A stretch of 64,000 nucleotides of DNA, taken from the NCBI RefSeq assembly GCF_900444995.1, contig NZ_UAPQ01000009.1, positions 62,001 to 126,000 on the forward strand, given 5' to 3'. The notes under the pieces are model-generated. The model was not told the origin of the DNA. It ran no database searches and saw only the letters and a list, made by a program, of their open reading frames with translations. Shown here piece after piece: positions 46,898 through 51,968 of the stretch. Source of the stretch: Actinomyces bovis. GTDB lineage: Bacteria; Actinomycetota; Actinomycetes; Actinomycetales; Actinomycetaceae. The position numbers were made by a program, and so were the translations under genes. Position 1 is the stretch's first letter; every line of letters begins with the position of its first letter.

Positions 46898-47515
46898 TCA
46901 GAGCAAGCTGATATCTCCGGCGCCGGCGCGCACGACCTCTGGCATATCTGCCGTGAGGTCGACGACGGTGGTCGGCTCAGTGGAGCTCACTGGCCCTTCA
47001 ATCACGACGTCGATCAGGTGTCCCAGGGAGTCCTCGATCTCCCAGCCACTGGTTTCAGGCTGCTCCTGCCCGGGGCGGATGAAGGTTGAGGACAGGATTG
47101 GTGCACCGAAGCCCGCTACTAGCGCTTGAGTGATGGCGTGCTTGGGAATGCGCACCCCCAGTGTGTGCTTCTTGGCGTTCAGGCTCATGCGTGGCACTTC
47201 TTTGGTGCCCTTGAGGATGAAGGTCCAGGGCCCCGGGGTGAGCCGTTTGATGAGTCGGAAAGCATTGTTGCCGACGATGGCGATGGGGCCCACCTGTCCG
47301 AAGTCTGCGCACACGTAGGTGAAATCATGCTTGTCCGAGAGTTGCCGGATGGCGCGGATTCGGTCCAAGCCCTCCTTGTTACCAGGGGCCGAGGCCAGAG
47401 CGTAGCCAGAGTCTGTGGGGTAGGCGATCAGGCCGCCGTCGCGCAGCACACTGACGACCTTGTCAACGAGCCGAGCTTGCGGATTGTCCGGGTGAATCTC
47501 CAGGTAGCGTGACAT
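46898..47515 (-). CDS. YciO/Sua5/YrdC-family protein (threonylcarbamoyl-AMP synthase-like)
   Basis: 205 residues with the YrdC fold. GGLIAYPTDSGYALA, TPGPWTFILKGTKEVP, HTLGVRIPKH and ILSSTFIRPG place it nearer to the YciO branch than to the tRNA-modifying Sua5 proper, so a role in t6A synthesis is not certain. The ATG at 47515 (MSRYLEIHPDNPQ) is the conserved family start. It diverges from the His/Cys-rich protein gene; the Zur-like boxes lie 80-160 bp upstream of it. Confidence 0.85.
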   Translation of the reverse strand: MSRYLEIHPDNPQARLVDKVVSVLRDGGLIAYPTDSGYALASAPGNKEGLDRIRAIRQLSDKHDFTYVCADFGQVGPIAIVGNNAFRLIKRLTPGPWTFILKGTKEVPRMSLNAKKHTLGVRIPKHAITQALVAGFGAPILSSTFIRPGQEQPETSGWEIEDSLGHLIDVVIEGPVSSTEPTTVVDLTADMPEVVRAGAGDISLL

Positions 47516-47595
47516 GCCCCTATTGTGCGCCAGGATCACTGCTTGCGGCAGGGTTCAGCACCGGCCAAGCGCACCAGCCCGGCGATTCACCAGAA

Positions 47596-47610
47596 TGGAA
47601 ATGACTCTCA
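47596..47610. promoter_or_regulatory. Zur-box-like site 1
   Basis: TGGAAATGACTCTCA matches the actinobacterial Zur palindrome TGAAAATGATTTTCA at 12 of 15 positions. First of three sites in an AT-rich stretch upstream of the His/Cys-rich gene. Confidence 0.55.
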
Positions 47611-47629
47611 ATTCGCGTGGACAACATTC

Positions 47630-47644
47630 CGAGAATGATTTTCA
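47630..47644. promoter_or_regulatory. Zur-box-like site 2 (best match)
   Basis: CGAGAATGATTTTCA matches TGAAAATGATTTTCA at 13 of 15 positions. Its centre is 34 bp from that of site 1, about three helical turns. Confidence 0.7.
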
Positions 47645-47661
47645 TGCATTGTTTTCGTTCA

Positions 47662-47676
47662 TGAGAGACATTTTCA
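47662..47676. promoter_or_regulatory. Zur-box-like site 3
   Basis: TGAGAGACATTTTCA matches the consensus at 11 of 15 positions. Its centre is 32 bp from that of site 2, and it ends 3 bp before the candidate -35 box. Confidence 0.5.
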
Positions 47677-47679
47677 TGT

Positions 47680-47709
47680 TTGGCATTCGGCAATTCTTGC
47701 GTTTATTCT
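47680..47709 (+). promoter_or_regulatory. Candidate promoter of the His/Cys-rich protein
   Basis: TTGGCA (47680-47685, 5 of 6 to TTGACA) and TATTCT (47704-47709, 4 of 6) are 18 nt apart. Transcription would begin near 47716. All three Zur-like boxes then lie upstream of the -35, a layout seen for Zur-activated as well as for repressed genes. Confidence 0.5.
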
Positions 47710-47724
47710 TTTCAGGAAGGAACT

Positions 47725-47785
47725 GCTGCTCCTCAATGTGATCACCACAGCTCATCTCTTGGGAGCAGCCTAACAATGAGGAGCA
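47725..47785 (+). promoter_or_regulatory. Leader with a possible ribosome-site switch
   Basis: GCTGCTCC (47725-47732) can pair perfectly with GGAGCAGC (47762-47769). The overlapping TGCTCCTC (47727-47734) can instead pair perfectly with GAGGAGCA (47778-47785), which is the Shine-Dalgarno itself. The two pairings exclude each other: one hides, the other frees the ribosome site of the His/Cys-rich gene. Confidence 0.45.
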
Positions 47786-47789
47786 CGCC

Positions 47790-48110
47790 ATGAGCACCAC
47801 CACCCACCGTCCTGCCGAGGCCCACCACCACACCCACGGACCTGACTGTGGCCACTTGGCCGTCATCCACGGCGACCACGTCGACTACATCCACGACGGG
47901 CACGCCCACCACGAGGACAACGGCCACTACGACGAGTGCGACACCTGCCAGTGCCCCGAGTGCTCCGGCGTCTGCGCCACCTGCACCTGCGAGGACTGCT
48001 CCTGCCCCACCTGCAACCACAACACCTGCTCCTGTGAGCACTGCGATGACGCCTGCTCCTCTTGCACCTGCGAAGACTGCAGCTGCGAGACCTGCACCCA
48101 CGCCGCCTAA
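47790..48110 (+). CDS. His/Cys-rich metallothionein-like metal-binding protein
   Basis: A 106-residue soluble protein with 20 Cys and 16 His. Residues 1-49 are His-rich, with HGPDCGH, IHGDHVDYIHDGH and HHEDNGHYDE, resembling small zinc-linked His-rich proteins of other bacteria. Residues 50-103 are two tandem 27-residue repeats with identical cysteine spacing: Cys 53, 55, 58, 62, 65, 67, 70, 72, 75 recur at 80, 82, 85, 89, 92, 94, 97, 99, 102, and Cys50 corresponds to His77. The TCEDCSC block is in both. No signal peptide, so cytosolic zinc (or copper/cadmium) storage is the best guess. GAGGAG precedes the ATG by 6 nt. Zur-like boxes lie upstream. I know of no named family with this two-part layout. 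Confidence 0.8.
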   Translation: MSTTTHRPAEAHHHTHGPDCGHLAVIHGDHVDYIHDGHAHHEDNGHYDECDTCQCPECSGVCATCTCEDCSCPTCNHNTCSCEHCDDACSSCTCEDCSCETCTHAA

Positions 48111-48130
48111 GGCACGCTTCCTCAAGTAAG

Positions 48131-48169
48131 GGCTAGGGCCCAGGACCTCAACGGTCCTGGGCCCTAGCC
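48131..48169. terminator. Perfect 17-bp bidirectional terminator
   Basis: GGCTAGGGCCCAGGACC (48131-48147) is the exact reverse complement of 48153-48169, with a 5-nt loop. It lies between the convergent His/Cys-rich gene and aspS and can serve both. Confidence 0.85.
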
Positions 48170-48200
48170 TCGCTTCGGAACACCAGTTGCCAAGGCCTTC

Positions 48201-49991
48201 TCAAGCCTTAGTGGAAGCCTTAAGCTCCTCAGCTTTGGCGTCCACACCTGCTTCCTTGCGCTGCTCGGCAGTGATCGGAGCAGGCGCATCGGTTAGCGGG
48301 TCGTAACCGCCACCGGACTTCGGGAAGGCGATCACGTCACGAATGGACTCGGCATGCGTAAGCAGAGAAACGATCCGGTCCCAGCCGAAGGCAATGCCAC
48401 CATGCGGCGGAGCGCCGAATTTAAAGGCGTCGAGCAGGAAGCCGAACTTCTCCTGCGCCTCAGCCTCACCGATGCCCATAACCTTGAAGACTCGCTCCTG
48501 CACGTCTCGGCGGTGGATACGGATAGAGCCGCCACCGATCTCGTTGCCATTGCAGACGATGTCGTAGGCGTATGCCAGGGCGCTGCCCGGATCGGTATCA
48601 AAGGTGTCCAGGCACTCGGGCTTGGGCGAGGTGAAGGCGTGATGCACTGCGGTCCAGGCGGACTTGCCCAACGCAACGTCGCCGTCAGCACTGGCTTGTG
48701 CCGAGGGCTTAAACAGGGGCGCGTCCACCACCCACACAAAGGACCAGGCATCTTCATCGATCAGGCCGCAGCGCTTGCCGATCTCCAGGCGCGCTGCGCC
48801 TAGCAGTGCCCGGGAGGCATCGACACCACCGGCAGCGAAGAAGACGCAGTCGCCGGGCTTAGCCCCCACGGCCTCAGCCAGCCCAGCCCGCTCGGCGTCG
48901 GTGATGTTTTTGGCCACCGGGCCGCCAAGCTCGCCGGTCTCCGAGATGGTGACATAGGCTAGGCCCTTGGCGCCGCGCTGCTTAGCCCACTCCTGCCAGG
49001 CGTCAAAAGTCCGGCGGGACTGCGCGGCGCCACCGGGCATAACCACTGCCCCCACATAGGGGTTCTGGAAGACCCGGAAGGTGGTGTCTTTGAAAAACTC
49101 AGTTAGCTCCACCAGCTCCAGGCCGAAGCGCAGATCGGGCTTGTCCGAGCCGTACTTTTCCATGGCGTCTTTGAAAGTCATGTGCGGGATCGGGGTGGGC
49201 AGCTCATATCCGATCAGCGCCCAAATCTCTTTAAGGACGTCTTCAGCTACCTTGATGACGTCCTCCTGTTCCACAAAGCTCATCTCCATGTCGAGCTGCG
49301 TGAACTCTGGCTGACGGTCCGCACGGAAGTCCTCGTCACGATAGCAGCGGGCGATCTGGTAGTAGCGCTCCATGCCGGCGACCATTAACAACTGCTTAAA
49401 CAGCTGCGGGCTCTGGGGCAGGGCGTACCAGGAACCGGGTGCCAGCCGGGCAGGGACCAGGAAGTCGCGGGCCCCCTCTGGGGTGGAGCGAGTCAGGGTG
49501 GGGGTTTCAATCTCTACGAAGTCATATTCGCCCAGTACCTTGCGGGCAGCCTGGGAGACCTTAGAGCGCAGGCGAATAGCGTGCTGCATCTTGGAGCGGC
49601 GCAAGTCTAGGTAGCGGTACTTGAGGCGGACTTCTTCACCAACCTGGCCAGCGTCCTCCGCGTGGTCAGAGACCTGGAAAGGCAGCGCGGCAGCGGGGTT
49701 GAGGATTTCTACGTCGGAGACAACCACCTCAATGTCACCGGTCGGCAGGTTGGGGTTGGCATTGCCCTCAGGGCGTGCGGAGACCTCGCCGACGACCTTT
49801 AGGACGTACTCAGCGCGCAGGTCATGGGCGACCTCTTCGCGGATAACCACCTGGGCAATGCCAGAGGCATCACGCAAATCGATGAAGGCGACGCCACCGT
49901 GGTCACGCCGGCGGTCCACCCAGCCGGTGAGAGTGACTTCTTGGCCGATGTCTCTGGCGCGCAGTGAGCCAGCGGTACGGGTTCGCAGCAT
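48201..49991 (-). CDS. aspS: Aspartyl-tRNA synthetase
   Basis: 596 residues, bacterial type. An N-terminal OB anticodon-binding domain ([21 protein letters not shown]) is followed by the class II core with motif 2 [19 protein letters not shown], the GAD insertion domain and motif 3 [10 protein letters not shown]. The ATG at 49991 ([10 protein letters not shown]) is chosen over an upstream start because it fits the family and has GGAAGGA before it. Whether it also charges tRNA-Asn cannot be told here. Confidence 0.95.
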
Positions 49992-50109: not shown

Positions 50110-50820
50110 CTACAAACCCTGCTCACCAAAGCTGAGGGCAAGACGCCGACGTCGGTTAAGCACTATGCCCACCGCCAGTGCCGTCACCACACCGGCCGTT
50201 GCCAGCACCGCTCCCGACAGGGGCGAGAATTCTCTCCTGTGCTGCTCGGCTGTGCCTGAGTCATTCGGCATTCCCGTTTCTCCGCCACCTGCGGCTGCCG
50301 GTGGCCGATGGGCTGGTGCCGCTCCGATAATCGTTACTTCCCCTACACTAAAGAAGGGGCTTTTGTTTTTCACTGCCGGGCTCGGCGCAGCTGTGGCCTG
50401 AGCCGCTCCGCTCGTGAGGCTTGGGCTTGCACCCTGCGTTTGGGCGGCACTGCTAGAGCTTGAAGACGCGGTGGGCAAGGGCGCCGGTTTGCTACGGAAA
50501 CGCAACCAATGTGGGCCCATACCTATGAGCTTAGGAAGTTCAACCGTGCCTGAGGAGGTGCCGTCTCCCCCAACTGTCACCGTGCCAAGCACCTGGGTCT
50601 CGACGTCGTCGAGCAGGATTTCCACCTGAGCTCTCGCTGGAAAGCCACTCAAAGTGTAGCTAAGGGTGCCACCAGCGGCCACGGTCGATGGGCTGACCGT
50701 TGACGCCGTGCCAAGGGTCGAATCGGAGTCTTCCACTCCCCAAGCTAATGGCGCCGCCAACGGTGCAGCTAATTGCAACCCCAGCAGGCCTACTGCTGCC
50801 AGCACTTGCACTAGCCGCAT
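50110..50820 (-). CDS. Membrane-anchored surface protein, unknown function (1)
   Basis: 236 residues from the ATG at 50820, chosen because a clean signal peptide (MRLVQVLAAVGLLGLQLAAP) then starts the protein. It has a short beta-rich domain (about 28-110, STVAAGGTLSYTLSGFPARAQVEILLDD) resembling Ig-like surface modules, a Ser/Ala/Pro-rich linker, one C-terminal membrane helix (LSGAVLATAGVVTALAVGIVL) and a basic tail. No LPXTG motif seen. Downstream of, and built like, the next gene. Confidence 0.7.
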   Translation of the reverse strand: MRLVQVLAAVGLLGLQLAAPLAAPLAWGVEDSDSTLGTASTVSPSTVAAGGTLSYTLSGFPARAQVEILLDDVETQVLGTVTVGGDGTSSGTVELPKLIGMGPHWLRFRSKPAPLPTASSSSSSAAQTQGASPSLTSGAAQATAAPSPAVKNKSPFFSVGEVTIIGAAPAHRPPAAAGGGETGMPNDSGTAEQHRREFSPLSGAVLATAGVVTALAVGIVLNRRRRLALSFGEQGL

Positions 50821-50912
50821 GCAACAGGCCTCAGCCAACCGGGCGCACACCCCGCTAGAGAAGGAGAAAATAGGCCCCAGGCAGTGCCCTACTCGCATGC
50901 TTGAGGATGCCC

Positions 50913-51968
50913 TCAGATGCCGCGCAGGGTCCTGGGGCGGGTCAGGAAAATGAATCCAGCGGCACCGGCGACGAGCACACCAGCTGCGCCGAGAAGCAAC
51001 CAGTCGCCTCCCCCCATGCCGCTGTCAGAATCAGCGGCGCCAACAGCTGGGGCCAGGGCATTCCGGCCGTCAGTCTGGTTCTCTTCGGAGATCTCCAGCT
51101 GCGCCCAGCCAATTAGCTTTCCGGTGCTGTTAGCCACGGCCAGCTTGTAGGAGCCCGACTTCATACTTGCAATGTTCATGACTATGGAGCGCTCGTTAGA
51201 CACTTCCAACCAGTCAGTTGCCTGCGCGCCGGGATAGGTGAACACGGAAACCCATTCCTTGGGGCTTACCGCATCAGAAGGCAGGTAGAGGGTCACCTCA
51301 TTACCCTGGCGACCACCAGAGACGGAACCAGCGTTTTCCTTGGTGAGCTGGTCCGCTGAGCTAACAGGCGCCGTGGGCGCGGCGTCCGGTTTACTGCCAG
51401 GTTTGGCACTAGGAGACGAAGACGCTGGAGCCTCTGATGCGGCGGCTGTTGCTGGCTGCGCAGGGTAATGCGGCGCCGCAGTGGCAGCTGCGGGCGGCTG
51501 CCCGGCAGCGGGCTGATTCGCGCCGGTGGCAGGCGCCGCGGGGTTTCCCCCAGTGGATGGCGACCTGACCTCTGCCCCCGGGATGATCTGGATATTCCGC
51601 TTTGGCTCAGACGGTGCTGCAGGAGGCGCCGGGGCATCTTTTGGTTCTTCAGCGGGCGGGGCGGGCGGGGCCGGTAGCGGCGCAGGATCCTTGTCCGGCG
51701 CAGGCTGAGGCATAGGCACCTCTGACGGCGGCTCCGTATGCGGGGTGGAAGTGGGCGTCGGCGTGCTCTTTTCAGGTACCGCCACGCCTACCTGTGGGCC
51801 CGCCACTGGGGTTGTGGGCGCGTCAGAAGGGGCAGCGACAGCGCCTGAATCCACTCCGCCAACTGCAATTCCCACTGCCAACACGACGGCGCCAAGACCA
51901 CTGACCCAGCGGCACGCGAGCCTGCTGGCCCGGCGCCCCGAGGGCGTGAAGCTCAAACCGTCCGACAT
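50913..51968 (-). CDS. Membrane-anchored Pro-rich surface protein, unknown function (2)
   Basis: 351 residues. Signal peptide (about 1-45, GAVVLAVGIAVGGVDSGAVAA), a long Pro/Ala/Thr-rich low-complexity stalk (about 46-210), a globular domain (about 215-305, NEVTLYLPSDAVSPKEWVSV and SGSYKLAVANSTGKLIGWAQ), then a membrane helix (WLLLGAAGVLVAGAAGFIFL) and a short basic tail. No sortase motif. Likely in one transcript with the smaller protein 92 bp downstream. Role unknown; adhesin or cell-wall factor are possible. Confidence 0.75.
   Translation of the reverse strand: MSDGLSFTPSGRRASRLACRWVSGLGAVVLAVGIAVGGVDSGAVAAPSDAPTTPVAGPQVGVAVPEKSTPTPTSTPHTEPPSEVPMPQPAPDKDPAPLPAPPAPPAEEPKDAPAPPAAPSEPKRNIQIIPGAEVRSPSTGGNPAAPATGANQPAAGQPPAAATAAPHYPAQPATAAASEAPASSSPSAKPGSKPDAAPTAPVSSADQLTKENAGSVSGGRQGNEVTLYLPSDAVSPKEWVSVFTYPGAQATDWLEVSNERSIVMNIASMKSGSYKLAVANSTGKLIGWAQLEISEENQTDGRNALAPAVGAADSDSGMGGGDWLLLGAAGVLVAGAAGFIFLTRPRTLRGI

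What the first reader, a model, noticed from the sequence alone, without database searches (positions are those of the whole stretch)
47790..48110. Two-part His-rich / double metallothionein-like protein
The sequence shows a 106-residue protein with 20 Cys and 16 His in which a His-rich N-terminal half (residues 1-49) is joined to two 27-residue repeats with identical cysteine spacing (Cys53-75 and Cys80-102, Cys50 aligned with His77). Known bacterial metallothioneins (SmtA/BmtA, MymT) do not have this layout. I infer a cytosolic zinc store or chaperone, possibly a new metallothionein class.
Basis: partly seen in the sequence, partly recalled or inferred. Interest (0 to 1): 0.85.

Follow-up and report, generated by a model that had tools for sequence, protein, structure and literature searches.

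The report
Two-part zinc-storing metallothionein of Actinomyces
A small bacterial protein joins a histidine-rich segment, also found on zinc importers, to a double cysteine-rich metal-binding segment, and related species appear to switch the same gene with two quite different zinc sensors, which makes it a promising new kind of zinc store to test.

Summary
The ORF is real: 106 aa, 20 Cys, 16 His, two 27-residue Cys repeats. It is present in 27 of 37 Actinomyces genomes of the first search and in 45 of the best 80 named loci; 18 of 20 Cys are invariant in 30 diverse rows. No Pfam or NCBIfam match at E<=10.

The His half is a portable module: in 23 of 35 other loci it ends a ZnuB-type zinc permease frame; in 11 it occurs twice in a small protein. 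I met the Cys half only behind it, in the copies read in full.

Regulation points to zinc. In 17 of 27 genomes the gene overlaps an SmtB-type ArsR gene; in the other 10, this one included, no orthologue of that regulator was found and Zur-box words lie upstream. Seven further genomes fit. The boxes abut the -35, as in Zur-activated zitB; at znuA they lie at the start codon.

Best reading: a cytosolic metallothionein-like zinc store induced by surplus zinc, here through Zur. Metal binding and expression are untested. New variant of a known kind; a 2010 survey could not be read.

The parts
47790..48110 (+). 106-aa His-module/double-metallothionein-domain protein (stop included)
   Evidence: 27 of 27 full-length Actinomyces copies, own included, have 20 Cys
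47790..47936 (+). His-rich module, residues 1-49 (HxHTHGPxCGHxAVxHGDHVDYxHDGHxHxxxxxHYDE); shared with C-terminal ends of ZnuB-type permease frames and with tandem-His proteins
47937..48107 (+). Cys-rich domain, residues 50-106, two 27-residue repeats, 19 Cys plus His77 and His104 (both His invariant in 31 rows), no aromatic residue
47596..47610 (+). Zur-box-like word TGGAAATGACTCTCA (12 of 15)
47630..47644 (+). Zur-box-like word CGAGAATGATTTTCA (13 of 15), the only word in the 2.6-Mb genome with 2 or fewer mismatches to TGAAAATGATTTTCA
47662..47676 (-). Zur-box-like word TGAAAATGTCTCTCA (12 of 15), 32 bp from the preceding box and ending 3 nt before the -35
47680..47709 (+). Predicted promoter: TTGGCA, 18-nt spacer, TATTCT; the only sigma-70-like match in 47400-48260 (0.1 expected in shuffles)
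   Evidence: aligned position in relatives
47778..47783 (+). Shine-Dalgarno-like GAGGAG
   Evidence: read directly from the sequence
48130..48170 (.). 18-pair hairpin (17 Watson-Crick pairs and one G-U; -45.5 kcal/mol for 48120-48180, z -7.6) between the convergent metallothionein-like gene and aspS; possibly a shared terminator, though without a T-run
   Evidence: no T-tailed terminator found

Best explanation
The gene encodes a cytosolic metallothionein-like zinc store. The double Cys domain (19 Cys plus conserved His77 and His104) binds several Zn(II), by analogy with SmtA perhaps three to four per repeat (inferred; SmtA recalled). The His module acts as a lower-affinity capture or hand-off segment, as it presumably does at the end of ZnuB permeases (inferred). 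The gene is switched on by surplus zinc. In most Actinomyces that carry it, this would happen because an SmtB-type ArsR repressor, whose gene overlaps it, lets go of a dyad in the promoter (regulator gene and metal-site motif shown in 17 of 17, dyad in 12 of 17; behaviour inferred). In the window's species and its like, no orthologue of that regulator is found and Zn-loaded Zur, bound at one to three boxes upstream of the -35, activates the gene (boxes and their place shown; binding and activation inferred from S. coelicolor zitB and Synechococcus bmtA).
For: Family conservation and Cys invariance. An ArsR gene overlaps the gene by 17 nt in 17 of 27 genomes, and 17 of 17 of these regulators carry the alpha5 zinc-site signature DxHx10Hx2E (signature as given in PMC8790569, passages). 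The ArsR orthologue (62-100% identity) is found in exactly these 17 of 37 genomes. Zur-like word (>=11 of 15) upstream in 10 of 10 of the others, 0 of 17 of the ArsR-linked ones, and 2 of 571 control segments. Seven more genomes fit. Window boxes: 4 matches (3 sites) against 0.18 expected in shuffles. One Fur-family protein in the genome, beside znuB and znuA. The boxes lie upstream of the -35 at this gene, but at or near the start codon of znuA in 25 of 25 loci. In S. coelicolor the zitB box lies 8 nt upstream of the -35 and Zur activates (PMC5472717, passages); Zur activates bmtA in Synechococcus WH8102 (PMC9337993, passages). The His module ends ZnuB-type frames in 23 of 35 other loci (two tested with Pfam).
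Against: No metal-binding, expression or phenotype data. Zur usually represses, and no Zur-DNA contact is shown here. L019 and L025 have only weak (11 of 15) boxes, a level that 2 of 571 control segments also reach, and L019 lacks the promoter-proximal element. In PMC9337993 the authors saw no general correlation between two Zur boxes and activation (passage). No structure could be predicted with confidence (mean pLDDT 54.3, pTM 0.29), which tells nothing either way for a metal-free metallothionein. Ten of 37 or 15 of 49 Actinomyces genomes lack the gene, so it is dispensable in the genus. Among 33 fusion loci outside the genus, 9 show no ArsR gene and none of the 32 examined has a Zur word above 11 of 15, so some members have neither known switch.
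Confidence: 0.6

Rival explanations
1. Zur represses the gene in Zur-box species, so the protein is made in zinc starvation and serves as a scavenger or allocator that receives zinc from the importer and hands it to apo-proteins.
For: Repression is the usual mode of Zur (PMC6103462, passages). The His module elsewhere ends the importer permease, so a link with uptake is natural.
Against: The boxes lie upstream of the only predicted -35, unlike znuA, where the box is at or near the start codon. Sister species carry an SmtB-type regulator, which implies induction by surplus; this rival needs opposite logic for the same gene in the same genus.
Confidence: 0.25
2. A copper or cadmium/mercury detoxification metallothionein (MymT-like in role) rather than a zinc one.
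For: Cys-rich domains bind soft metals tightly; metal selectivity cannot be read from sequence. The SmtB-type AzuR also responds to cadmium and other metals (PMC8790569, passages).
Against: Both kinds of attached regulator are of zinc type: ArsR with the DxHx10Hx2E signature and Zur boxes; the His module goes with ZnuB.
Confidence: 0.12
3. Cys/His-rich low-complexity ORF or an artefact of GC-rich sequence.
For: Biased composition; no Pfam or NCBIfam match; overlapping frames on both strands are open.
Against: Orthologues at 70-88% identity in 26 other genomes with invariant Cys number, low pN/pS, linkage to a metalloregulator.
Confidence: 0.01

Closest known systems
SmtA/BmtA cyanobacterial-type metallothionein (Pfam PF02069) with its repressor SmtB
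   Same: Small Cys/His protein expected to hold zinc; in 17 of 27 genomes next to an SmtB-type regulator with the alpha5 signature.
   Different: No match to PF02069; two tandem Cys repeats instead of one zinc-finger-like domain (layout of SmtA recalled); added His module; no orthologue of the regulator found in the window's genome.
BmtA of Synechococcus WH8102, activated by Zur (PMC9337993, passages read)
   Same: A metallothionein gene with Zur boxes in its promoter, proposed to bank surplus zinc.
   Different: Distant phylum, and no PF02069 match here; activation is shown there, only inferred here.
zitB zinc exporter of Streptomyces coelicolor, activated by Zur (PMC5472717, passages read)
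   Same: Same phylum, same kind of box (tGaNNatSatNNtCa) just upstream of the -35.
   Different: The target is a CDF exporter; here it is a storage-type protein, with three box-like words in the window, two of them 32 bp apart.
C-terminal His segment of actinobacterial ZnuB-type permeases (ABC-3, PF00950)
   Same: Module 54-76% identical to the matched part of residues 1-56 in the permease-fused loci.
   Different: There it ends a membrane permease; here it precedes a metallothionein-like domain.
Predicted actinobacterial metallothioneins and 'metallohistins' (Schmidt et al. 2010, title seen only in a reference list)
   Same: Possibly the same or related proteins.
   Different: Could not be compared: the paper is not held.

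Membership tests
Metallothionein (general sense) | Small, Cys-rich, with CxC and CxxC motifs and few aromatics | tested here: met
   106 aa, 19 Cys in 57 residues, CxC/CxxC ladder, no aromatic in residues 50-106
Metallothionein (general sense) | Binds several metal ions through thiolates | not testable with these tools
   Needs purified protein; AlphaFold2 without metal was uninformative
Metallothionein (general sense) | Expression induced by metal | not testable with these tools
   Only sites and linked regulators were seen
Bacterial metallothionein family PF02069 (SmtA/BmtA) | Match to the family model | tested here: not met
   No match at E<=0.001 in the whole genome nor for the protein or its halves at E<=10
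MymT (mycobacterial Cu metallothionein) | Match to a MymT model or sequence | tested here: inconclusive
   No NCBIfam match, but I did not check that the library holds a MymT model; layout of MymT is recalled only
SmtB-type (alpha5) ArsR repressor, linked gene in 17 of 27 genomes | ArsR helix-turn-helix domain and DxHx10Hx2E signature | tested here: met
   Signature in 17 of 17; HTH_5 and HTH_metalloreg matched for the one tested, L037
Zur regulon | Zur box upstream, with a Zur in the genome | tested here: met
   Three box-like words 47596-47676; single Fur-family protein beside znuB and znuA
Zur regulon | Zn-dependent binding and control by Zur | not testable with these tools
   Needs DNA-binding assay and zur mutant

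The most novel reading that the evidence does not exclude
An actinobacterial metallothionein class, built from a zinc-permease His segment and a double Cys cluster, has exchanged its zinc sensor in place: a derepressing SmtB-type ArsR in most Actinomyces species that carry it, an activating Zur in others, near the same chromosomal neighbour. That would be a second, independent case of a Zur-activated metallothionein and a natural experiment in rewiring a zinc response while keeping its sign, with the His module passing zinc from import to store.
Probability: 0.45. Interest if true: 0.78.

Novelty: new variant of a known kind. Interest (0 to 1): 0.62.

Why it matters
Few families of bacterial metallothionein are characterised, and zinc storage in bacteria is little understood (both from my own knowledge). 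This family occurs in oral and other actinobacteria, has no match in Pfam or NCBIfam, and carries a His module also found on zinc importers, which suggests a route from uptake to storage. The apparent exchange of SmtB-type ArsR for Zur gives pairs of related species in which the direction of Zur control can be tested directly; Zur regulation of a metallothionein was called unprecedented in 2022 (PMC9337993, passage).

Tried and rejected
Structure prediction on a 30-row alignment gave mean pLDDT 54.3 and pTM 0.29; no fold search was made on it. The PDB sequence search gave one Cys-driven match at E 5.3, taken as chance. The plasmid search gave three records matching the His half only. The genome-wide pattern gave 15 matches with up to 3 mismatches, 4 of them at this gene, so 11 elsewhere against 8 for the reversed control pattern: the rest is background level. 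The one elsewhere with the highest matrix score, L120, lies inside a coding region whose product reads like PhoH (recalled name), and I treat it as chance. The aspS tree asks for 4 regulator changes (bootstrap 3-5), but its well-supported branches force only 1, so I do not claim several independent swaps; G016 is only partial there (396 aa). L019 was left out of the promoter consensus because its proximal element does not match (8 of 14). One search took the wrong strand for loci on minus strands; its alignments were discarded and redone. In one search several znuA starts were misplaced; redid the scan on all 25 loci. Literature: ten searches; I saw listings only, several cut to the best 8-20 of many more, and none of the titles listed is about this protein. 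The library is open-access only, so this is weak evidence of absence.

Considered and rejected: chance low-complexity ORF; membership in the SmtA family (no model match).

Full report
What is there. The ORF at 47790-48110 (+) encodes 106 residues with 20 Cys and 16 His. Residues 1-49 are His-rich; residues 50-106 hold 19 Cys in two copies of a 27-residue unit, each closed by a conserved His (His77, His104; invariant in 31 rows). At shift 27, 16 of 28 positions agree, 7 of them not Cys (29 of 20,000 shuffles of the non-Cys residues reach 7); Cys spacing alone fits shift 17 slightly better (10 Cys pairs against 9), so it would not prove the repeat. The N-terminus has no signal-like hydrophobic stretch, so the protein is taken to be cytosolic (by eye).

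It is a family. In 59 genomes of the first search, 34 matched: 27 of the 37 genomes of the window's genus, its own included, over nearly the whole length (relatives at 70-88% identity), and 7 of 22 genomes of other families, mainly in the first half. All 27 full-length copies have 20 Cys. A scan of named genomes shows that the genus is Actinomyces. It returned its best 80 loci: 45 full-length fusions (12 Actinomyces, 33 others such as Mobiluncus, Boudabousia, Rothia, Acidipropionibacterium, Nocardioides, Pseudonocardia, Kibdelosporangium, Lentzea, Nocardia and Alloscardovia) and 35 loci with the His half only. One of the 45 (L047) is cut at its contig end; L047 and L071 have 19 Cys and L050 has 21. 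In 30 diverse rows (29 chosen from the 45, plus the window) 18 of 20 Cys are invariant. The Cys domain is rare in the phylum at large: 2 of 396 genomes, the window's own included. In the window's family it is in 43 of 213 genomes, among them 34 of 49 Actinomyces (genus count from its listing). I saw no Cys domain without the His module among the copies read in full, but of the nine matches outside the genus, some of them short or weak, only two (G496, G607) were read. No Pfam or NCBIfam model matches at E<=10, and PF02069 finds nothing in the genome.

The His half is a portable zinc-linked module. A profile of it matches 45 of 396 phylum genomes. Among the 35 His-only loci it sits at the C-terminal end of an open frame holding a ZnuB-type permease in 23, is present twice in a small protein in 11, and stands otherwise in 1. 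Pfam confirms the ABC-3 domain in the two permease fusions tested. The window genome's own ZnuB has no such tail (sequence printed). The first module of the tandem-His proteins often ends in H(Y/W)DEC, which is where the Cys domain begins in the metallothionein-like proteins, so the Cys domain looks as if it stands in the place of the second His module (inference).

Regulation, ArsR type. In 17 of the 27 Actinomyces genomes the gene overlaps by 17 nt the 3' end of an ArsR-family gene. All 17 regulators carry DxHx10Hx2E, the signature of the SmtB-type alpha5 zinc site (PMC8790569, passages). An ATCAA-N6-(T/C)TGAT dyad lies ahead of 12 of these 17 regulators, by eye between a TTGACA-like -35 and a TATAAA-like -10 in most. 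Outside the genus, 14 of 33 fusion loci have an ArsR gene directly upstream, 10 have one elsewhere in the locus and 9 have none found, one of these (L047) cut off by its contig end (counted from its listing). In L053 an ArsR and a Fur-family gene (both matched by Pfam) follow within about 2 kb downstream; L056 has the ArsR gene at a similar place.

Regulation, Zur type. The other 10 genomes, the window's among them, have no such ArsR gene at the locus, and no orthologue was found elsewhere: the ArsR gene occurs at 62-100% identity in exactly 17 of 37 genomes, and the 20 others give only weak matches (at most 38% identity) or none; some of these genomes are drafts. In all 10 there is at least one word matching TGAAAATGATTTTCA at 11-15 of 15 positions within 400 bp upstream; in the 17 ArsR-linked ones the best is 10; among 571 control segments of 12 Actinomyces loci 2 reach 11 and none 12. 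Two of the ten (L019, L025) reach only 11. Where two words are seen, they are 29-33 bp apart in 5 loci (L001, L002, L005, L020, L026) and 47-64 bp in 3; L019 and L025 show one. In the window there are three sites, 47596-47610, 47630-47644 and 47662-47676; four pattern matches, counting both strands, against 0.18 expected. The 47630 site is the best match in the genome. Seven more Actinomyces genomes found later follow the rule: six with ArsR and no box, one without ArsR and with two boxes; some of these species had been seen before under their names. Three loci outside the genus read in the same call have ArsR and no box. Of the 33 non-Actinomyces fusion loci, 32 could be scanned and one, L066, reaches 11 of 15 (5% of its control segments do too), none more.

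Why these are taken as Zur sites. The genome has one Fur-family gene, next to a permease gene of the ZnuB kind with a ZnuA gene upstream (the ZnuC gene between them is named from recall). In the genus the same kind of word lies at or near the start codon of znuA: over 25 loci the best word scores 12-15 of 15 in 24 and 11 in one (L229, where another site also reaches 11), while the second best elsewhere in the same stretch scores 10-12. It overlaps an ATG or GTG in 24 of 25; in L224 one lies 32 nt downstream. Two of the three forms used there were read from these loci themselves, so the scores are partly circular; against the original word alone the scores were 10-12 in the 13 loci where one search found it close to the start that it had placed or, in L228, misplaced, and in G004. 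The boxes also fit the published S. coelicolor motif tGaNNatSatNNtCa in kind (PMC5472717, passages).

Direction of control. At the window gene the nearest box ends 3 nt before the only predicted promoter (TTGGCA-18-TATTCT), and the CATTTTCATGTTTG element leading into the -35 is found (12-14 of 14) in 9 of the 10 Zur-type loci. S. coelicolor zitB, which Zur activates, has its box 8 nt upstream of the -35. At znuA the box is at or near the start codon, a place suited to repression. Synechococcus WH8102 Zur activates a metallothionein, described in 2022 as unprecedented; the same paper saw no general link between two boxes and activation. Since the ArsR-linked sister species should also be induced by surplus zinc, activation keeps the sign of the response. 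This is inference; repression, with expression in starvation, remains the main rival.

Same place in the chromosome. In 26 of 27 genomes the gene and aspS are on one contig within 5.6 kb (18 of 26 within 1 kb); in G002 they are on different contigs. So the sensor seems to have been exchanged in place. Adjacent ArsR genes in several other genera suggest that the ArsR state is older. The aspS tree of the 27 needs 4 changes (bootstrap 3-5), but strongly supported branches force only 1.

What is shown and what is inferred. Shown: gene, conservation, module sharing with ZnuB frames, the mutually exclusive ArsR gene and Zur-box words in 34 Actinomyces genomes, box placement. Inferred: zinc binding, stoichiometry, cytosolic storage, hand-off by the His module, Zur binding and activation.

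Prior knowledge. None of the titles listed by ten literature searches is about this protein; the lists were often cut and the library is open-access only. A 2010 in silico survey of actinobacterial metallothioneins and metallohistins is cited in PMC4531530 (passages and part of the reference list seen) but is not held, so an earlier mention is possible. I rate the finding a new variant of a known kind.

Noticed in passing
L115:3560-3574 (own genome) and the 25 znuA loci scanned: A Zur-box word overlaps an ATG or GTG at the start of znuA in 24 of 25 Actinomyces loci, often ATGAGAATGATTC.CATG giving MRMI.M, which suggests leaderless transcripts blocked by Zur at the start.
   Followed up: partly
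L106:5293-5901: In Kibdelosporangium aridum an open frame matching the ArsR profile ends in two His modules and is followed by a separate tandem-His protein: a metal-sensing repressor apparently fused to a zinc-binding tail.
   Followed up: no
L097, L100, L101, L103, L105, L108, L110: Tandem-His proteins of 96-100 aa in Streptomyces, Nocardia, Corynebacterium and others; the one scanned (L110) has no Pfam or NCBIfam match. L105 has a 14-of-15 Zur-box word at -265; a control segment of the same locus also reached 14, perhaps the same site.
   Followed up: partly
window 48130-48170: An 18-pair hairpin (one G-U) between the convergent metallothionein-like gene and aspS, without a T-run; possibly a two-way terminator.
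   Followed up: partly
G000:C4:45620-46506: An ArsR-family gene of the window genome lies next to a CDF-type cation efflux gene, so the genome has a zinc-export candidate as well.
   Followed up: no
window 50110-51968 (-): Two adjacent open frames upstream of aspS that read like secreted proteins with a C-terminal hydrophobic stretch (by eye); not examined.
   Followed up: no
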